Of a DNA stretch of 64,000 nucleotides, positions 794 to 24,953 are shown piece after piece. Under the pieces are notes generated by a model. It did no database searches, had not been told where the DNA came from, and saw only the letters and a list, made by a program, of their open reading frames with translations. The translations under genes and the position numbers were made by a program. The first letter of the stretch is position 1. Each line of letters begins with the position of its first letter. This stretch comes from Companilactobacillus formosensis (GTDB lineage Bacteria; Bacillota; Bacilli; Lactobacillales; Lactobacillaceae), in NCBI RefSeq assembly GCF_005405305.1, contig NZ_BJDU01000003.1, positions 62,001 to 126,000 on the forward strand, given 5' to 3'.

Positions 794-1156
794 ATGAGTT
801 TAATATCATCAATTTTGATTGGAGCACTTGGAGGAATTGCAACGGTTCTTTTATTAAATGCTTTTGATAATAAAAAACATAATGTGAAAACCTCCGAAAA
901 AAATCTCGGTAGAATTCCTAGCCGAGACGAGGCAAAGCTATCGTCGGTAGCTGTAATTAAACCAGCATTATTCATTCTAACCACGACAGACAAAGCTATA
1001 TTTAGTAAAGAAGATTCACCATCAATCACTATTTATAAGCAATCTGGAATTGTTGAAGTTGAAACCAATAAAGAAAGTATTATTTTTAGCATAATTAATA
1101 TTGAAAGAATCGATTATGATCCAGATAAATGTAATGTCTATTTTGAGGGAGAGTGA
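794..1156 (+). CDS. Phage hypothetical protein with N-terminal membrane anchor
   Basis: A 120-residue protein with a hydrophobic N-terminus (about residues 2-22) followed by a polar domain. An AGAAGGA-type ribosome binding site precedes it. An out-of-frame ATG at 790 gives only a 25-codon ORF, so 794 is preferred. The end overlaps the GTG start of the ArpU-like gene. Function unknown. Confidence 0.5.
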   Translation: MSLISSILIGALGGIATVLLLNAFDNKKHNVKTSEKNLGRIPSRDEAKLSSVAVIKPALFILTTTDKAIFSKEDSPSITIYKQSGIVEVETNKESIIFSIINIERIDYDPDKCNVYFEGE

Positions 1157-1590
1157 GCATTATTAAATTAAGACCAGATATACGAAGTAGATGTGAAAGC
1201 ATTCTTAGAGACTATCCTAGCGTTGATGGCTATATCTTAGATAGAAAACGTGAGCTTGCTTGCCAGCCTCATGAAGACGATGAGAATGTAGGTGGTGGGA
1301 AGTCATCTAAGATATCACGTCCACAAGAAACGTACGTTATCACGTTAGACCAAGATATGCGTTTAAGAATGCTAGAGAATCAGAAGAAGGCAGTGACTGA
1401 CTGCTACTTAGAAACTGATGAGGACACCAGAACTATAATCAGAGAATTGTATTTCAAGAAACATCCGACGTATACGATCAGTGGATTGTCGATTAATCAA
1501 AAAGTTAACGTGTCGATAGCAACCGCTAAACGTTTGAGAACTAGATTTTTAATTGAACTATCTGAAAAGCTAGGCATGTTTGAACCTTAA
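1153..1590 (+). CDS. arpU: ArpU/RinA-type phage late transcription regulator
   Basis: This 145-residue protein has the layout of the ArpU family: a charged N-terminal half and a C-terminal region that looks like a sigma-factor-region-4-type helix-turn-helix (about residues 95-140, around SIATAKRLRTRF). In related Gram-positive phages such proteins sit just before the packaging genes and activate late transcription. Here too a candidate promoter with a direct repeat follows at 1,600-1,654, then the HNH and terminase genes. The start is GTG, overlapping the previous stop, with a GAGGGAG motif upstream. The family call rests on remembered sequence type and position. Confidence 0.75.
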   Translation: MSIIKLRPDIRSRCESILRDYPSVDGYILDRKRELACQPHEDDENVGGGKSSKISRPQETYVITLDQDMRLRMLENQKKAVTDCYLETDEDTRTIIRELYFKKHPTYTISGLSINQKVNVSIATAKRLRTRFLIELSEKLGMFEP

Positions 1591-1599
1591 TGCTTTAAA

Positions 1600-1654
1600 T
1601 TGAGCTAAACGTGAGCTTTTTGACGGTACTTTAAGAGTTAAATTAGTAGTATAG
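1600..1654 (+). promoter_or_regulatory. Candidate ArpU-dependent late promoter with TGAGCT direct repeat
   Basis: TGAGCT occurs at 1,601-1,606 and again at 1,612-1,617, exactly 11 bp apart (one helical turn). TTGACG follows at 1,620-1,625, and weak -10-like hexamers lie around 1,643-1,652 (TTAGTA, TAGTAT). A direct repeat immediately upstream of a -35-like element, just downstream of an activator gene, is the expected geometry for an activated late promoter. The binding protein is inferred from position. Confidence 0.5.
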
Positions 1655-1678
1655 AAAGTTAGCAGGAAGTTAGCTTTC
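1654..1678 (+). other. 10-bp RNA hairpin at the start of the putative late transcript
   Basis: GAAAGTTAGC (1,654-1,663) can pair over all ten positions, two of them G-U, with GTTAGCTTTC (1,669-1,678) around the loop AGGAA. There is no T-tract, so it is not a terminator. A second inverted repeat, CATAAAC/GTTTATG, lies at 1,701-1,729. They open a long structured untranslated region. Confidence 0.45.
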
Positions 1679-1731
1679 TTACCTCATAAATTAACGACGA
1701 CATAAACGTGCGCGGAAAACATGTTTATGGT

Positions 1732-1822
1732 GCAGGCAATCTGGCTAAGCTAATAGAATCTAAGTAATGTAATCAATTATCATGTTCTGAATAGCTTTCG
1801 AGTTCAAATCTCGATACCTGTA
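1732..1822 (+). ncRNA. tRNA-like element A (91 nt)
   Basis: A perfect T-arm (stem TCGAG/CTCGA, loop TTCAAAT) is followed by TACCTGT, which pairs with GCAGGCA at 1,732-1,738 (six of seven positions including one G-U). The middle does not fold as a normal D-arm plus anticodon arm. A hairpin GTAAT/ATTAT with a 7-nt loop exists, but the loop GTAATCA has an atypical position 37, and an alternative stem AGCTA/TAGCT also forms. It may be a degenerate tRNA gene or a tRNA mimic. No CCA is encoded. An 8-bp hairpin TACGAGAG/CTCTCGTA (1,823-1,846) follows at once. Confidence 0.45.
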
Positions 1823-1876
1823 TACGAGAGTTAGACCACTCTCGTACATACACAATCCTCTGAAACAATAAAAGGT

Positions 1877-1965
1877 TGGATGGTGACTAGAGCGGTAATA
1901 GTAGTAGAAACTAGTGTATCTAAGGTAGTGATTCTACGTCGGTGGTTCGATTCCATCTCATCCAA
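1877..1965 (+). ncRNA. tRNA-like element B (89 nt) with enlarged anticodon arm
   Basis: The acceptor stem TGGATGG/TCATCCA is fully paired (one G-U). The D-arm ACTA/TAGT has a loop containing the GG pair, and the T-arm GGTGG/CCATC carries loop TTCGATT. Positions 8-9 are TG. Instead of a 7-nt anticodon loop, GTAGA and TCTAC enclose 24 nt, itself pairable as ACTA/TAGT, and the variable region is only 3 nt. This equals a canonical class I tRNA with about 17 nt inserted in the anticodon loop. Reading it as a class II tRNA-Tyr or tRNA-Ser gives no valid anticodon stem. Confidence 0.5.
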
Positions 1966-1991
1966 TTGGCTGGCGGAAAACAGCCTAAACT

Positions 1992-2015
1992 AAAGGGTGT
2001 CTATTCCCTTTTAAA
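1992..2015 (+). terminator. Weak terminator-like hairpin
   Basis: AAAGGG (1,992-1,997) pairs with CCCTTT (2,006-2,011) around an 8-nt loop and is followed by a very short T run. Another hairpin, GGCTG/CAGCC, precedes it at 1,968-1,985. Both lie between tRNA-like elements B and C, so they could separate or punctuate transcripts. The T-tract is too short for a confident call. Confidence 0.3.
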
Positions 2016-2044
2016 AAACAACAAATATCATTTTTGATAACTGG

Positions 2045-2112
2045 TAGTCAGTGGCGCAACGGGTAACGCTAAATATAATGATGCTGCATGGTTCGACTCC
2101 ATGCCTGACTAT
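2045..2112 (+). ncRNA. tRNA-like element C (68 nt) lacking an anticodon stem
   Basis: The 7-bp acceptor TAGTCAG/CTGACTA is perfect. T8-G9 are followed by a canonical-looking D-arm (GCG/CGC, loop with GGG), and the T-arm GCATGG/CCATGC has loop TTCGACT. Only about 15 nt remain for the anticodon arm plus variable loop, where 21-22 are normal, and they form no stem. Three arms are therefore tRNA-grade while the decoding arm is missing. Confidence 0.5.
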
Positions 2113-2154
2113 AGATACACGCGGTTACTCTACCGATACACAAAAGGAGCAAAC

Positions 2155-2196
2155 ATGGGAAGGACAACCCATTCAACCAAGGTCCACAACAGATAA
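2155..2196 (+). CDS. Possible 13-codon mini-ORF
   Basis: AAAAGGAG at 2,142-2,149 lies 5 nt before an ATG that opens a 13-codon reading frame (MGRTTHSTKVHNR). A strong ribosome binding site inside an otherwise non-coding interval is the only support. It may be a leader peptide, a remnant or chance. Confidence 0.2.
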   Translation: MGRTTHSTKVHNR

Positions 2197-2238
2197 CAAT
2201 CGTCTTGGCGGACGTTAAACAGCTGTTTTAACCCTCAG

Positions 2239-2263
2239 TGACCAGTGATGATAAAGCTGGTCA
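2239..2263 (+). other. 7-bp hairpin upstream of tRNA-like element D
   Basis: TGACCAG (2,239-2,245) and CTGGTCA (2,257-2,263) are perfect inverted repeats around an 11-nt loop, with no T-tract. A second small inverted repeat, GTTAAA/TTTAAC, lies at 2,214-2,232. Function unknown. Confidence 0.35.
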
Positions 2264-2271
2264 TGTGCTAT

Positions 2272-2403
2272 GTGGATGCATGGCTACTGCTAAGCAAAAA
2301 ATTCTCCCTTTGGATCATTACATAATAATTGTAGACATTCCTTTTTTTGAATACCAACTTGTTTCTAAGACTTAGCAATCCGGTTCGATTCCGAATATCC
2401 ACG
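2272..2403 (+). ncRNA. tRNA-like element D (132 nt) with ~75-nt insertion
   Basis: Acceptor strands GTGGATG and TATCCAC pair over seven positions (one G-U). The T-arm has loop TTCGATT and four of five stem pairs. The D region is reduced to CATGGCTAC. A perfect 7-bp stem TGCTAAG (2,288-2,294)/CTTAGCA (2,371-2,377) sits where the anticodon stem should be and encloses 76 nt of AT-rich sequence. The element may be a tRNA gene broken by an insertion or a large stem-loop tRNA mimic. Confidence 0.4.
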
Positions 2404-2414
2404 TATTAATTTTA

Positions 2415-2446
2415 GATCAGTCAATTGTTACTGGTCTTTTTATTTT
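2415..2446 (+). terminator. Rho-independent terminator fused to the next gene's RBS
   Basis: GATCAGT pairs with ACTGGTC (2,430-2,436, one G-U) around 8 nt and is followed by TTTTTATTTT. The T-tract runs straight into GGAGGA, the ribosome binding site of the gene at 2,459. The same tail recurs at 3,138-3,152, so this is a repeated terminator/RBS cassette. Confidence 0.65.
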
Positions 2447-2458
2447 GGAGGAGAGAGC

Positions 2459-2767
2459 ATGGTTAAACAATGCAAGCTGGTGATCGTTAGTAATTTCAGT
2501 GGCTTTAATGGCTATTTAAGAAAGCTAAGTCAATCAGTTAGTATCAATCACATTGACAAAAGTAAACATATTATTTACCCAGATGATAGTTGTCCAATCT
2601 ATGTTAAATCAGTTAACCAATTAGATACGATGGATGGATTTGGCAGAGAGATAACAGGTATGGAACTATTTATGTCTGAATCTCAAAAGCTAATTGACTT
2701 CGAAGAATTAGCTGGGTGGTTTCAGATGGTGGAACATAACAACCTTAAATATAAAGTGGAGGGCTAA
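2459..2767 (+). CDS. Phage hypothetical protein, 102 aa
   Basis: A good GGAGGAGAG site precedes the ATG. The product is soluble and mixed alpha/beta in appearance, with no motif I recognise. It is embedded between tRNA-like elements D and E, directly behind a terminator, so its expression may depend on readthrough. Confidence 0.6.
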   Translation: MVKQCKLVIVSNFSGFNGYLRKLSQSVSINHIDKSKHIIYPDDSCPIYVKSVNQLDTMDGFGREITGMELFMSESQKLIDFEELAGWFQMVEHNNLKYKVEG

Positions 2768-2778
2768 CGATTGAATAA

Positions 2779-2848
2779 CAATAGCTCATACTTCTTACAA
2801 CTACTCACTAGCTAAGAAAGCTGGTTCGATTCCATGCCTAGCTATTGT
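2779..2848 (+). ncRNA. tRNA-like element E (70 nt), degenerate
   Basis: CAATAGCT (2,779-2,786) pairs perfectly with AGCTATTG (2,840-2,847). A T-loop TTCGATT is flanked by only three good stem pairs. A hairpin TTCTTA/TAAGAA with a 15-nt loop occupies the middle, and there is no D-arm. The 3' half resembles element C (GGTTCGAyTCCATGCCT in both), which suggests common origin and decay of E. A competing hairpin TGTGGAA/TTCCACA overlaps its 3' end. Confidence 0.35.
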
Positions 2849-2894
2849 GGAAGTATTTCCACAGTGTATGAAATAAAAGTTTAATACTAATCGA

Positions 2895-2915
2895 AGTGAG
2901 GTTGTCTCCCTCACT
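2895..2915 (+). other. Hairpin resembling an anticodon stem-loop
   Basis: AGTGAGG and CCTCACT form a perfect 7-bp stem around the 7-nt loop TTGTCTC. By geometry position 33 is T and the triplet is GTC (Asp-like). It stands alone, 5 nt before tRNA-like element F, without its own acceptor or T-arm. The resemblance may be coincidental. Confidence 0.3.
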
Positions 2916-2920
2916 CTGGC

Positions 2921-2987
2921 AGCGTGAATGGTTGGGAAGCTAAGAGATCATATCTCTTGCGTTCAGGTTCGAACCCTGGACACGCTA
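2921..2987 (+). tRNA. tRNA-like element F, anticodon CAT, shortened D-arm
   Basis: This is the most tRNA-like member. The acceptor AGCGTGA/ACACGCT pairs at six of seven positions. The anticodon stem AAGAG/CTCTT carries the 7-nt loop ATCATAT, giving anticodon CAT with T33. The variable loop is 4 nt, and the T-arm TCAGG/CCTGG has loop TTCGAAC. Only about 14 nt lie between the acceptor and the anticodon stem, so the D-arm can form at most three weak pairs (TGG/CTA). It could be a minimal tRNA-Met or tRNA-Ile2, or a decaying gene. No CCA is encoded. Confidence 0.5.
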
Positions 2988-3003
2988 TAATCGTTGGTGG
3001 TGT

Positions 3004-3048
3004 GGAAAGTTATAGAAAGGTGCGAGGCAACGGCTCGTGGGACTTTCC
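3004..3048 (+). other. Two-level stem-loop between tRNA-like elements F and G
   Basis: GGAAAGT (3,004-3,010) pairs perfectly with ACTTTCC (3,042-3,048). Inside, GCGAG/CTCGT forms a 5-bp stem with a 7-nt loop GCAACGG. The arrangement resembles an acceptor plus one arm without a T-arm. There is no T-tract. Confidence 0.35.
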
Positions 3049-3053
3049 AAGTT

Positions 3054-3106
3054 AGTGTGAATGCAAATGGCGTGCACGTCGATAGGTTGGATTCCTATCC
3101 ACACTT
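3054..3106 (+). ncRNA. tRNA-like element G, minimal (53 nt)
   Basis: The acceptor AGTGTGA/CCACACT pairs at six of seven positions, with the same mismatch position as element F. The T-arm stem ATAGG/CCTAT is perfect, with loop TTGGATT (the usual C56 is G). Only 21 nt separate the two arms, and they can form a single TGCA/TGCA hairpin with a 7-nt loop. It is acceptor plus one arm plus T-arm, far shorter than a normal tRNA. Confidence 0.4.
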
Positions 3107-3113
3107 TATTATT

Positions 3114-3147
3114 AGCTGATAGATAATATCTATCGGCTTTTTATTTT
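3114..3147 (+). terminator. Rho-independent terminator fused to the next gene's RBS
   Basis: An 11-bp stem, AGCTGATAGAT (3,114-3,124) with ATCTATCGGCT (3,128-3,138), closes a 3-nt loop and runs into TTTTTATTTTGGAGGA. That tail is identical to the one at 2,437-2,452. It ends the tRNA-like interval before the membrane protein gene. Confidence 0.7.
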
Positions 3148-3159
3148 GGAGGATAAGTA

Positions 3160-3363
3160 ATGAATAACAACGATAGCAATACAACTAAAACAGGCTTAGG
3201 GTTTCTATCCATTCTCACTCTCATCTTTGTCGTGGCTAAGATATTCAATCTAATTCAATGGCCATGGTTACTTGTGTTCGTTCCACTGTGGGGACCAGTC
3301 CTAATACTTATTGTCTTTAGCTTATTAGCATGGTTATTCTTCTATCTACACGGTGATTTATAA
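3160..3363 (+). CDS. Small phage membrane protein, 67 aa
   Basis: A polar N-terminus (about 12 residues) is followed by two hydrophobic segments with the aromatic/proline motif IQWPWLL and FVPLWGP between them. Small phage and plasmid proteins of this shape are often annotated as Tmem_185A-like (fragile-X-F-associated); I recall this but cannot test it. GGAGGA lies 7 nt before the ATG. The stop overlaps the start region of the HNH gene. Confidence 0.6.
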   Translation: MNNNDSNTTKTGLGFLSILTLIFVVAKIFNLIQWPWLLVFVPLWGPVLILIVFSLLAWLFFYLHGDL

Positions 3364-4205
3364 TGCCAAAACCAAAGAAATTAATGGTCATCAATGGAAA
3401 ACGGCAACTTGTTCCTATTGATTACCAGACCCGAGTTGAAACGGACAAAGCATACAACAAGAAACGCAACCACGAGAATAAAGAGTACGTGTCCTTTTAT
3501 AAGACCACAGCATGGCTACACACCAGGCAACAGGTACTGACACGTGACTACTCAACCTGTGTGCGATGTGGATTGTCTGGCAATATTGTGGATCATATCG
3601 TTCCATCGGAAGATGATTGGGAAGACAGACTTAACATAGATAACTTAGAGACATTGTGCCAAAGATGTCACAACTTAAAGACTAAACGTGAATGGATAAA
3701 GAAACACAAAGGACGTGATAGAGCTATGAAGATACATGTAGTGATAGGCTACCCAGCTAGTGGTAAGTCTACCTATGTTGCTAGACATATGACATCACAT
3801 GATCTTGTGTATGATTATGATTTACTTACATCATCGTTAGATGGTTCAATGCTTAACGTCTTGAACACAAATGATGTTGAAGCTAACAGCCGAACGATTC
3901 ATAAGCACAACATAGATGTGAACGATTATGTTCAGATTATATATGAGACGATATTACGAAAGATTAAAGCAGAAAAGACTTTCAATAATGTTTGGTTGAT
4001 CATGACCAAGCCTGATGAAAGGTTGACTACATTACTATCATCTAATGATGTTGATTGGTTGATGTTAGATACTACGAAGGATGAGTGTATCAGTAGACTA
4101 CATAGACTACATAGAGATACAACTGATTCATATAAGATCATGAATGATGTTGATAGATTGATTGATGAATTAGATTTAGAAATTAAAAAAGTAAAAACAA
4201 ATTAA
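3363..4205 (+). CDS. HNH endonuclease fused to a P-loop kinase-like domain
   Basis: Residues 45-115 form an HNH nuclease: a CVRC pair, the core VDHIV, and NLETLCQRCHNLKT with the second zinc-binding CxxC. Phage HNH proteins of this type work with terminase at cos cleavage. From residue 122 a second domain begins, MKIHVVIGYPASGKST, with a Walker A motif, and continues for 158 residues like a nucleotide or polynucleotide kinase-type P-loop fold (YDYDLL could be a kinase aspartate). Most packaging-associated HNH proteins are single-domain and about 100-170 residues. An internal ATG at the domain border could also yield the P-loop part alone. Confidence 0.8.
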   Translation: MPKPKKLMVINGKRQLVPIDYQTRVETDKAYNKKRNHENKEYVSFYKTTAWLHTRQQVLTRDYSTCVRCGLSGNIVDHIVPSEDDWEDRLNIDNLETLCQRCHNLKTKREWIKKHKGRDRAMKIHVVIGYPASGKSTYVARHMTSHDLVYDYDLLTSSLDGSMLNVLNTNDVEANSRTIHKHNIDVNDYVQIIYETILRKIKAEKTFNNVWLIMTKPDERLTTLLSSNDVDWLMLDTTKDECISRLHRLHRDTTDSYKIMNDVDRLIDELDLEIKKVKTN

Positions 4206-6864: not shown

Positions 6865-8136
6865 ATGAGCTTTTTTAGAAGTTTAAATGATTCTAGCAAT
6901 GATTGGGCTATGGACTATTTGAATAACGGTATTTTGCCAAGCAATCGAAATTTTATGGGAATCGGTGCTTTGAATAATTCAGATGTATTGACTGCTGTTT
7001 CGATTGTGGCTGGTGATGTTGCTAGATTCCCTATTTTGCAAATTAGAGATAGTGATGATTCAATTGTGGACGAGAATACTGTTACCTACCTATTAAATAA
7101 GAAATCTAATGATGATAGTTCCGCATACTTCTGGAAATTTGCCATGATGGTTAATGCGATTTTGACTGGTAATTCGTACACACGTATTATTCGTGACCCT
7201 ACGACATACGGTAAGAACGCTGGTAAAGCAATAGAATTAGAATTTTTCCCACCTTCACAAGTGGCAATTAATTATCGAGATAGACCAGGTGTAAAACGTG
7301 AATATTACTATACGTTTTACCCGGAAGATGACAGAAAGTCGTTTGATTTAGAACCAGAAGATGTTATACATTTTAAATTCTTTAGTTCCGACGGGATTGT
7401 TGGTAGGTCGCCACTTTTATCGCTTGGAGACGAAATCAATTTACAAAAGTCTGGTGTTGATACGCTAGGACGATTCTTTAAGTCAGGTCTTAAAGGCTCA
7501 ATTTTAAAGGTTAATGGAGCTAAGCTCAGCAAAGAAGCACGTAGAAAGATTAGAACTGATTTTGAATATGCTCAAGAAGGCGATTCAAACGGTCCTATCG
7601 TTACTGATTCGACAATGGACTATCAACCATTAGAAGTAGATACAAGCGTTCTGAATTTAATTAATTCCAACAATTGGTCCACATCACAGATTGCTAAAGC
7701 AATGAGAATACCAGCCTATAAATTGGCAATTAATTCTCCTAACCAATCGGTGAATCAGTTAGCGGCTGGATATATCAGTAATGACTTGCCGTTTTACTTT
7801 GAGCCAATCGTTAGTGAATTTGAAATGAAATTACTGACTGATAAAGAACGTCACAAGTACCATTTTGAATTTGATACTCGTAAACAAACAGCAAGACCAG
7901 TCACTGAACTGATGGCTATGGTCGAACATAATGTCTTAACGCCTAATGAAGTTAGAGCCGAATTAGGTAAGAAAGCTGATGATAAAACTTCTGAAATGAA
8001 TGAATATCAATCAACATTAAACACAGTTTCTTTGGGCTTGAAAGATGAATATCAAAAGAATAATAAGGCTCAACCGAAAGGAGGTGATGTTAATGGAACT
8101 AAGAACAACACAAACCAAAGTGGAAGTCAGAAGTGA
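6865..8136 (+). CDS. Phage portal protein, HK97 type
   Basis: The 423-residue protein has the size and order of HK97-like portals, which form the dodecameric vertex ring through which DNA enters and leaves the head. Recognisable stretches are NNSDVLTAVSIVAGDVARFP near residue 40 and the QKSGVDTLGRFFKSGLKG region in the middle. GGGAGGTGA precedes the ATG. The 3' end overlaps the protease gene by 44 nt. Confidence 0.88.
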   Translation: MSFFRSLNDSSNDWAMDYLNNGILPSNRNFMGIGALNNSDVLTAVSIVAGDVARFPILQIRDSDDSIVDENTVTYLLNKKSNDDSSAYFWKFAMMVNAILTGNSYTRIIRDPTTYGKNAGKAIELEFFPPSQVAINYRDRPGVKREYYYTFYPEDDRKSFDLEPEDVIHFKFFSSDGIVGRSPLLSLGDEINLQKSGVDTLGRFFKSGLKGSILKVNGAKLSKEARRKIRTDFEYAQEGDSNGPIVTDSTMDYQPLEVDTSVLNLINSNNWSTSQIAKAMRIPAYKLAINSPNQSVNQLAAGYISNDLPFYFEPIVSEFEMKLLTDKERHKYHFEFDTRKQTARPVTELMAMVEHNVLTPNEVRAELGKKADDKTSEMNEYQSTLNTVSLGLKDEYQKNNKAQPKGGDVNGTKNNTNQSGSQK

Positions 8137-8704
8137 CGAAGAAAATTCACGAACGGTTGAAGGCTATGCACTTAAATTTAATACACGTTCACAACCTTTA
8201 GCTGACAACTATTTTATCGAAACACTAGATAAACGGTGCCTTGATAATACTGACATGAGTAATGTGGTAGCCACTTTTAACCACGATCAATCTAAATTGT
8301 TAGGTCGTTCAGGTGTCAATTTAGCTTTGACCAAGGACGATACCGGATTGAGATTTAAAATTGATTTACCAAATACTACAACTGCAAACGATGTGCTAGA
8401 AGAAGTCAGAATGGGAATCTTGTCTCAATGTTCTTTCGCATTCTCGTTGCCAGACGATGGTAGCGGAAGCGAATGGCATGAGTCAGATATTGATGGTGTG
8501 GAGTATGAAAGAACAATTCTCTCAATCGATAAATTGTATGATGTTTCGATTGTTACCACACCAGCCTATGCGGATACAAACGTGTCTGTAGGCAAACGTT
8601 CAATGGAAGTAGTTAACAAACTAAAAGAAGAACCGTTAATTAAAGCCAGAGAGCTTAAACGACAAGAAGCTTTACGAAAACTAAATGTGGATTATTTGAA
8701 ATAG
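8093..8704 (+). CDS. Prohead protease, HK97 family (S78)
   Basis: The 203-residue maturation protease has the family features VEGYALKFN at the start, a His in TFNHD and a Ser in QCSFAF, the likely catalytic pair. It processes the capsid scaffold during head assembly. ATG 8,093 is chosen because AAAGGAGG ends 8 nt upstream; the frame extends further 5' inside portal but without a better site. It sits between portal and capsid as expected. Confidence 0.87.
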   Translation: MELRTTQTKVEVRSDEENSRTVEGYALKFNTRSQPLADNYFIETLDKRCLDNTDMSNVVATFNHDQSKLLGRSGVNLALTKDDTGLRFKIDLPNTTTANDVLEEVRMGILSQCSFAFSLPDDGSGSEWHESDIDGVEYERTILSIDKLYDVSIVTTPAYADTNVSVGKRSMEVVNKLKEEPLIKARELKRQEALRKLNVDYLK

Positions 8705-24882: not shown

Positions 24883-24953
24883 AGCGAACTACGAGAATCG
24901 AACTCGCGACACTAGCTTGGGAAGCTGGTATTTTACCATTAAACTAAGTTCGC
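24883..24953 (-). tRNA. tRNA-Gly (CCC)
   Basis: On the minus strand the gene starts GCGAACTTAGTTTAATGG. It has a 7-bp acceptor, a D-arm with GG, anticodon loop TTCCCAA (anticodon CCC, reading GGG), and T-loop TTCGATT with stem GCGAG/CTCGT. It is 71 nt including the discriminator; CCA is not encoded. Its 3' end faces the prophage, the usual orientation when a phage integrates into a tRNA 3' end. Confidence 0.92.

What the first reader, a model, noticed from the sequence alone, without database searches (positions are those of the whole stretch)
1591..3158. Array of seven tRNA-like elements with abnormal decoding arms in the late leader of a prophage
Seven elements (A-G) have a T-arm with TTCRANN-type loop (six exact, one TTGGATT) and a matching acceptor stem at the correct distance. 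Normal tRNA genes would also have D- and anticodon arms. Here the middle is missing, shortened, enlarged by 17 nt, or interrupted by about 75 nt; only F has an ordinary anticodon stem-loop (CAT). They sit between the late regulator and the packaging genes, interleaved with perfect non-terminator hairpins. A family of tRNA mimics (decoys for anticodon nucleases, processing signals for RNase P/Z in a long leader, or translation modulators) or a decaying tRNA cluster would both fit.
Basis: partly seen in the sequence, partly recalled or inferred. Interest (0 to 1): 0.85.

Follow-up and report, generated by a model that had tools for sequence, protein, structure and literature searches.

The report
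Phage tRNA-like RNAs without decoding arms
A stretch of prophage DNA just before the packaging genes encodes a row of RNAs that keep the top half of a transfer RNA but have lost or replaced the part that reads the genetic code, and related viruses carry such RNAs too, most likely as cutting signals or decoys rather than for protein synthesis.

Summary
Six of seven elements (A-D, F, G) in window 1591-3158 have a T-arm and a matching acceptor stem; E is a recombinant remnant. A strict scan finds 5 in the array against 0.022 per shuffled copy. They belong to a conserved family: 1.5 kb behind the late regulator, such elements occur in 26 of 28 Companilactobacillus, 63 of 80 Lacticaseibacillus-type and 78 of 80 L. 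plantarum-type loci, with 265 sense and 0 antisense hits. Within-family covariation is moderate. The anticodon arm is absent, over-sized, hexa-looped or replaced by a helix with an insert; ARAGORN of 171 distinct elements tRNA. Relatives lacking only that arm score as tRNA with Rfam's model, also in metagenomic viral contigs. A hairpin with a conserved AUGAUAA loop precedes some elements. Best explanation: non-decoding tRNA-like modules cut out by host RNase P and RNase Z, punctuating the late transcript and releasing small RNAs. Decoys are the main rival; decay is unlikely as the general account. Expression and processing were not testable, so function is inferred.

The parts
1153..1590 (+). 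late transcription regulator (ArpU/RinA-like)
   Evidence: PHROG 36, E 5.9e-21
1637..1655 (+). promoter-like motif GTTAAATTAGTAGTATAGA (inferred late promoter)
   Evidence: pattern TWAATTRRTAVYAT behind the regulator in 20 of 28 Companilactobacillus loci; similar motif in L. plantarum-type loci by eye; the sigma-70 consensus scan did not find it
1699..1731 (+). hairpin with CGCGGAAAA loop ending directly before element A
   Evidence: GGAAA-type loops at the same place in some relatives by eye
1732..1822 (+). element A: tRNA-like, second helix AAGCTA/TAGCTT (by eye) with long apical insert; relatives of 57 nt lack the insert
1823..1846 (+). perfect 9-bp hairpin starting right after element A
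   Evidence: sequence; fold
1877..1965 (+). element B: tRNA-like with over-sized anticodon-like arm; relatives of 81, 89 and 97 nt
   Evidence: weak tRNA-Sec match 17.6 bits, threshold 47
2046..2111 (+). element C: tRNA-like with ordinary D-arm, no anticodon arm; a type that recurs in Companilactobacillus
2239..2263 (+). hairpin with GATGATAAA loop upstream of element D
2272..2403 (+). element D: tRNA-like with helix TGCTAAG/CTTAGCA and long insert
   Evidence: TGTTAAG/CTTAACA in L099
2414..2437 (+). terminator-like hairpin before ORF 2459-2767
2459..2767 (+). small ORF (102 aa), no PHROG match
2772..2847 (+). element E: chimeric remnant, T-stem 3 of 5 pairs
2921..2987 (+). element F: tRNA-Met-like (CAT), poor D-arm; same sequence in L200 and L206
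3054..3106 (+). element G: tRNA-like with TTGGATT loop and no anticodon arm; alternative 5' strand at 2999
3114..3138 (+). terminator-like hairpin before the next ORF
3160..3362 (+). small protein of PHROG 1374
3363..4205 (+). HNH endonuclease / terminase small subunit-like protein (PHROG 4581)

Best explanation
The array is a set of non-decoding tRNA-like modules at the start of the phage late transcript. Each keeps the parts that host RNase P and RNase Z recognise (acceptor stem, T-arm, often a D-arm or D-loop-like part) and drops the anticodon arm or replaces it with a linker or a helix plus insert. Proposed working: the late regulator switches on a promoter just behind its own gene; the long leader folds; RNase P cuts at each 5' end and RNase Z after nucleotide 73. 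This separates regulator mRNA from packaging mRNA and frees small RNAs: the tRNA-like bodies and the hairpins between them. Lack of an anticodon arm keeps the copies out of translation. Shown by sequence: the family, its place and strand, its stems, moderate covariation. Inferred: transcription, cutting, benefit. I hold the family of non-decoding tRNA-like elements to be real at about 0.93 (lowered from 0.95 after the covariation recount); the number given here is for the processing mechanism.
For: Sense strand only: 265 sense and 0 antisense hits in 1.5 kb behind the regulator in 188 loci, 7 hits in 1.5 kb upstream. An element starts within 170 nt of the regulator in 74 of 80 L. plantarum-type loci (mostly 98-111 nt) and 59 of 72 Lacticaseibacillus-type loci (113 in 23, 134 in 15, 137 in 9), though in only 12 of 28 Companilactobacillus loci. 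Nucleotide 74 is T in 150 of 170 elements, and CCA is not among the 12 commonest 74-76 triplets; host tRNA genes look alike there (T74 in 24 of 27, CCA in 0 of 27). In the 30 of 75 L. plantarum-type rows printed, conservation stops right after position 73-74. Stems. Rfam's tRNA model accepts relatives lacking only the anticodon arm. Hairpins ending within 12 nt upstream: 47 of 75 clusters, shuffle mean 28.4, maximum 39. Hairpins starting within 6 nt downstream: 70 of 99, shuffle mean 56.4, maximum 69. Elsewhere some sit between late genes: head assembly and major head protein (L409), major head and tail protein (L361), 1.5 kb before terL (L397). RNase P cuts other small phage RNAs (PMC11143913, passages).
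Against: No RNA data. Position is not universal: in 21 Streptococcus-type loci there were 14 hits downstream, 19 upstream and 1 antisense, and 6 of 16 named phage stretches had no element behind the regulator. Under another filter over whole loci, 2 antisense hits appeared in 28 Companilactobacillus loci. Some elements in other contigs lie by replication genes (L343, L366), a transposase (L384) or behind terL (L381). Ordinary tRNAs are mixed into the arrays. The downstream hairpin excess is small. A lone cutting signal would not need arrays, conserved hairpin loops or shared insert motifs. C-type acceptors have a mismatch at 7:66 in 11 of 11 stem rows.
Confidence: 0.45

Rival explanations
1. 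The elements are decoys or sponges: abundant, stable, CCA-tailed tops of tRNAs that occupy host factors binding the acceptor end and elbow (RNase P, RNase Z, CCA-adding enzyme, EF-Tu) or bacterial defences that attack tRNA acceptor ends.
For: Many copies, varied acceptor sequences, acceptor-end parts kept and anticodon loop lost. Cas12a3 binds acceptor, CCA and T-arm, and stepwise removal of tRNA loops did not impair its cutting (PMC12851939, passages). In contig L409 an element follows an abiF RNA by 4 nt; that abiF RNA goes with an abortive-infection gene is recalled.
Against: No partner enzyme identified. The place behind the regulator and the linked hairpins are not required by a sponge. 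Expression and CCA addition unknown.
Confidence: 0.25
2. The elements are parts of larger structured small RNAs: the 5' hairpin with conserved loop, the insert and the second helix are the active parts, acting in trans or binding a protein, and the tRNA-like part only gives a stable, processed 3' end.
For: Hairpins with the AUGAUAA loop stand 21-27 nt (loop start to element start) before an element in 17 of 20 distinct GATGATAAA and 6 of 7 distinct TATGATAAC hairpins; stems vary with pairing kept; reversed-loop controls gave 0 hairpins in 36 occurrences. The second helix of the GTGAGA family is 6-9 bp in 9 of 9 distinct members.
Against: Inserts vary greatly in length and sequence; many elements have no such hairpin and almost no insert.
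Confidence: 0.2
3. A decaying cluster of former phage tRNA genes.
For: Ordinary tRNAs occur in neighbouring prophages at the same place; E is a broken chimera; covariation within the best-sampled element is only moderate.
Against: In the L. plantarum-type element 98.1% of cells stay paired (shuffle maximum 96.9) and 5 of 16 pairs change on both sides (shuffle mean 2.16, maximum 5), leaving out 4 rows of another sequence. The same anticodon-less form is kept across most L. plantarum-type loci. Similar forms recur in other viral contigs.
Confidence: 0.07
4. Chance pairing plus the eye of the reader.
For: Stem pairing was part of the detection in most scans, and a few of the 171 distinct elements are overlapping or chance pairings.
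Against: Shuffles, strand control, an independent covariance model in relatives and alignment anchored on the regulator only.
Confidence: 0.01

Closest known systems
Ordinary phage-encoded tRNA genes and tRNA islands
   Same: acceptor stem, T-arm, often D-arm, clustered, sense strand
   Different: no working anticodon arm in most elements; 144 of 171 not called by ARAGORN; usual place behind a late regulator in the lactobacillus phage sets
tmRNA tRNA-like domain
   Same: acceptor, T-arm and a second helix with long insert in place of the anticodon arm (A, D and GTGAGA-type)
   Different: no tmRNA called; inserts much shorter; G3-U70 not present in D; a tag reading frame was not looked for systematically
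Plant mitochondrial t-elements (recalled; search listing only)
   Same: tRNA-like shapes without decoding that serve as RNase P/Z cutting signals
   Different: here in phage DNA and in arrays; cutting not tested
Phage phi80 M3 RNA and P1/P7 C4 RNA (PMC11143913, passages)
   Same: small phage RNAs that RNase P cuts
   Different: no sequence comparison made; the passages seen do not describe arrays or T-arms
GOLLD and ROOL RNAs (PMC12286853, passages)
   Same: phage non-coding RNAs often near tRNA islands, GOLLD named partly for Lactobacillales; ROOL lies in the same cluster as an anticodon-less element in L398
   Different: no match in the window or in 17 relatives; much larger
Latilactobacillus curvatus prophage tRNAs of non-assignable isotype (PMC10688831, passages)
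   Same: possibly the same kind of object, seen as failed cloverleaf predictions
   Different: treated there as tRNA genes; three cases, no family drawn in the passages seen

Membership tests
Decoding tRNA gene | acceptor stem and T-arm with TTCRANN loop | tested here: met
   A-D and F, acceptors 6 or 7 of 7 pairs; G has TTGGATT; E fails
Decoding tRNA gene | anticodon arm with 5-bp stem and 7-nt loop | tested here: not met
   absent or abnormal in A, B, C, D, G; CAT loop in F only
Decoding tRNA gene | Rfam RF00005 score at or above 29 bits | tested here: not met
   no array element; F 15.5 bits. Met by some relatives without anticodon arm
tmRNA | recognised tRNA-like domain and tag reading frame | tested here: not met
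   ARAGORN reports no tmRNA; acceptor of D has G3-C70; reading frames in inserts not examined systematically
t-element / tRNA punctuation signal | cut by RNase P at the 5' end and RNase Z at the 3' end within a longer transcript | not testable with these tools
   needs RNA ends or in vitro cleavage
t-element / tRNA punctuation signal | acceptor and T-arm kept, between genes, sense strand | tested here: met
   gene contexts (not all late)
GOLLD / ROOL | match to the Rfam model | tested here: not met
   (ROOL only in the distant contig L398)
tRNA pseudogene cluster | stems eroded without compensation | tested here: not met
   (moderate covariation); E alone fits

The most novel reading that the evidence does not exclude
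Phages of several bacterial groups carry an overlooked class of RNA: composite modules of a conserved-loop hairpin and a tRNA top half without a decoding arm, strung like cassettes in their transcripts, swapped by recombination inside the near-invariant T-loop, and used as a changeable set of small RNAs against host tRNA-dependent defences, released by the host's own tRNA-processing enzymes.
Probability: 0.25. Interest if true: 0.92.

Novelty: new variant of a known kind. Interest (0 to 1): 0.8.

Why it matters
ARAGORN misses most of these elements, and no tRNA feature was annotated in the 16 named phage stretches fetched, so a common phage RNA may have been passed over. It gives a concrete reason for long untranslated stretches between late regulators and terminase genes, offers model phages (A2, PL-1, Lrm1, Sha1), and makes it testable whether phages use tRNA-processing enzymes to cut their own messages or to make decoys. 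It also bears on why some phage tRNA calls of undefined type do not fit codon usage.

Tried and rejected
Rejected or not borne out: tmRNA (no call); GOLLD/ROOL in the window; anticodon-nuclease decoys as the general role; decay as the general account; the idea that lack of CCA sets the phage elements apart from the host (host tRNA genes lack it too); enrichment of anti-Shine-Dalgarno motifs in the array (no clear excess over the other strand). GGAAA-loop hairpins are suggestive by eye, but a general scan tied only 2 of 33 to an element. The sigma-70 scan found 6 sites against 6.3 in shuffles, none at the motif. My first covariation count (10 of 16 pairs changed on both sides) was inflated by 4 rows of an unrelated sequence; without them it is 5 of 16. 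Glutamicibacter phage BIM BV-113, a relative of L344 (57% of the query at 87.6%), has an ordinary tRNA-Gln and no anticodon-less element in the 1 kb scanned. Of 82 pattern matches examined in viral contigs 39 failed the stem test, some lying inside ordinary tRNA-His genes. Neighbour gene families were searched for 30 proteins from 20 of 22 listed contigs; 12 of 30 had no match. DNA search with L361 found no named phage.
Full report
WHAT IS THERE. The window is part of a genome whose same-genus relatives include Companilactobacillus species (the genus name comes from genome contigs records with matching contigs). The segment lies between an ArpU/RinA-like late regulator (1153-1590) and a small protein (3160-3362), an HNH/terminase-type gene (3363-4205), TerS, TerL and portal. 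My scanner asks for a T-arm and then a 3' acceptor strand that pairs upstream; it found A, B, C, D, F and a version of G. Under stricter rules it gives 5 in 1591-3158, against 0.022 on average and at most 1 in 1000 dinucleotide shuffles. ARAGORN reports only F, and Rfam's tRNA model reaches its threshold for none of the array.

E IS A REMNANT. E joins the start of a small ORF (82% identical to L200), a 26-nt piece identical to another element type (L219, L111), and a 39-nt piece identical to the 3' half of a C-type element and its following hairpin (L030). The last two overlap in the T-arm, so recombination in the near-invariant T-loop probably made it. This may also be a source of the mosaic look of these arrays (inference).

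A CONSERVED FAMILY AT A CONSERVED PLACE. Pieces of the array match 17 of 41 genomes searched (own included), in 1 of 15 genera. Regulator relatives were found in 21 of 36 genomes of the genus. Scanning 1.5 kb behind the regulator gave at least one element in 26 of 28 Companilactobacillus loci, 63 of 80 Lacticaseibacillus-type loci and 78 of 80 L. plantarum-type loci. The Companilactobacillus loci were anchored at a fixed position, not at each stop codon, and many loci are close relatives. Sense hits were 67, 102 and 96; antisense hits in the same stretches 0, 0 and 0; hits in 1.5 kb upstream 1, 1 and 5. With another filter, one search gave 101 sense, 0 antisense and 3 upstream for the Lacticaseibacillus type, and one search gave 2 antisense hits over whole Companilactobacillus loci. 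An element starts within 170 nt of the regulator in 74 of 80 L. plantarum-type, 59 of 72 Lacticaseibacillus-type, but only 12 of 28 Companilactobacillus loci. Of 16 named phage stretches, 10 have elements: PL-1, A2, Lrm1, Sha1, Lb, LF1, two Latilactobacillus phages, JCL1032 (behind another activator gene) and Streptococcus phage Javan235 (an undefined tRNA by ARAGORN). JNU_P1, PSA, phiMH1, PK5.1, phiEG37K and PLE2 showed none behind the regulator, some of these stretches being cut by the record's end. None of the 16 stretches has a tRNA feature annotated. Against a fixed place: 21 Streptococcus-type loci gave 14 hits downstream (12 loci with a hit), 19 upstream and 1 antisense, several downstream ones being ordinary tRNAs by eye.

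WHAT THE DECODING PART LOOKS LIKE. Among 171 distinct elements ARAGORN as tRNA, 7 as undefined and 144 not at all; a few of the 171 are overlapping or chance pairings. The forms seen, by eye: no anticodon arm, only a linker (C-type; the L. plantarum-type 60-mer; the L. brevis phage 58-mer); a 54-55-nt version in Lacticaseibacillus phages; a hexaloop arm; a 4-nt-loop arm; an 11-nt-loop arm; and a second helix directly before the T-stem with a long insert (A, D, GTGAGA-type). In the GCAACCG family of Lacticaseibacillus phages the stems stay nearly the same while the middle runs from 26 to 96 nt. Ordinary tRNAs (for example Asn, Gln, Thr, Tyr) are interspersed.

COVARIATION. In L. plantarum-type loci aligned by the regulator only, there are 46 distinct rows. 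Four are an unrelated sequence; without them, 42 rows form 98.1% standard pairs (shuffles 96.2% on average, 96.9% at most), and 5 of 16 pairs change on both sides (shuffle mean 2.16, maximum 5; 1 of 500 shuffles reaches 5). With all 46 rows the count is 10 of 16, inflated by the unrelated rows. Shuffles ignore relatedness, so this is moderate support. C-type elements found by their D-arm motif: 11 distinct stem rows, 89.4% paired against 87.3% (maximum 90.2), 3 pairs changed on both sides against 1.60: weak by itself; position 7:66 is always a mismatch. The second helix of the GTGAGA family was not used in detection; it is 6-9 bp in 9 of 9 distinct members with differing sequences, while 7.4% of shuffled middles reach 6 bp.

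INDEPENDENT MODEL. Rfam's tRNA covariance model accepts anticodon-less relatives: 47.2, 55.2, 48.3 and 46.7 bits for elements of 58-67 nt in L229, L216, L208 and L207, among 17 loci searched; others, such as the Sha1 60-mer, were not called. In 11 of 13 further viral contigs the anticodon-less element scored 43.6-55 bits (one more in L366 at 38.1); L361 and L409 were not called. So these are tRNA relatives lacking the decoding arm.

BREADTH. Of 82 matches in the 80 stretches listed, 43 have acceptor pairing of at least 6 of 7 and at least 4 of 5 T-stem pairs; 29 of these 43 have linkers of 8 or 9 nt; 39 failed. Contexts vary: 1.5 kb before terL (L397), just behind terL (L381), between a head-assembly gene and the major head protein (L409), between major head and tail genes (L361), 1.6 kb behind a phage activator with a ROOL RNA between (L398), near DNA polymerase (L343), near a helicase loader (L366), near a transposase (L384). 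L366, related in part to Ligilactobacillus salivarius plasmids, carries rows of 42-47-nt minihelices of acceptor and T-arm only, with 12 distinct T-stems among 16 motif matches, one of which is not a minihelix.

NEIGHBOURING HAIRPINS. A hairpin with the loop [GT]ATGATAA[AC] stands before elements: 17 of 20 distinct GATGATAAA hairpins and 6 of 7 distinct TATGATAAC hairpins have an element starting 21-27 nt after the loop start (the script printed these distances 5 too low, as the window's own case, 2247 to 2272, shows). Stems vary while pairing is kept; reversed-loop controls gave 0 hairpins in 36 occurrences. In the window it stands before D. Hairpins of any loop end within 12 nt upstream of elements in 47 of 75 clusters against 28.4 in base shuffles. 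In L409 the upstream hairpin is an abiF RNA by Rfam, 4 nt before the element.

HOW IT MOST LIKELY WORKS. The parts kept are those that RNase P and RNase Z bind (established knowledge); the part lost is needed only for decoding. Nucleotide 74 is T in 150 of 170 elements, as in 24 of 27 host tRNA genes, none of which encodes CCA. The sense strand, the usual place behind the regulator, the stop of conservation after position 74 in the 30 of 75 L. plantarum-type rows printed and the flanking hairpins fit modules cut out of the late transcript, leaving defined mRNA ends and free small RNAs. What the small RNAs do is open: decoys for acceptor-end enzymes or defences is the main rival, a trans-acting small RNA the next. 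None of this was tested on RNA.

NOVELTY. Ten library searches and passages of eight papers showed no description of such a family. The nearest were prophage tRNAs of non-assignable isotype in L. curvatus and small phage substrates of RNase P. The library lacks most subscription papers, so this is not proof of novelty. I file it as a new variant of tRNA-like RNAs, not as tRNA, tmRNA, GOLLD or ROOL.

Noticed in passing
window 2239-2263; also L204, L210, L216, L223, L031, L055: Hairpins with a conserved AUGAUAA loop and varied stems stand just upstream of tRNA-like elements in phages of two host genera; possible protein-binding RNA.
   Followed up: partly
L398 675-1247 (-) and 225-286 (-): ROOL RNA and an anticodon-less tRNA in one cluster behind a phage activator; a possible link between the two RNA classes.
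   Followed up: no
L409 1866-1965: An abiF RNA match lies 4 nt before an anticodon-less tRNA between a head-assembly gene and the major head protein gene.
   Followed up: partly
L366 10650-13000 (-): Row of 42-47-nt acceptor/T-arm minihelices in a contig partly related to Ligilactobacillus salivarius plasmids; HEARO RNA at 7959-8172 of the same contig.
   Followed up: partly
L235 about 2600-2650: Minihelix-like element upstream of the regulator in Streptococcus phage Javan235 (by eye); the Streptococcus-type set has more hits upstream than downstream.
   Followed up: no
window 24883-24953 (-): Ordinary tRNA-Gly (CCC) on the minus strand (61.1 bits).
   Followed up: no
L115 2443-2592 and L116 1732-1911: Small ORFs are annotated over the first tRNA-like element in phages PL-1 and A2 and may not be genes.
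   Followed up: no
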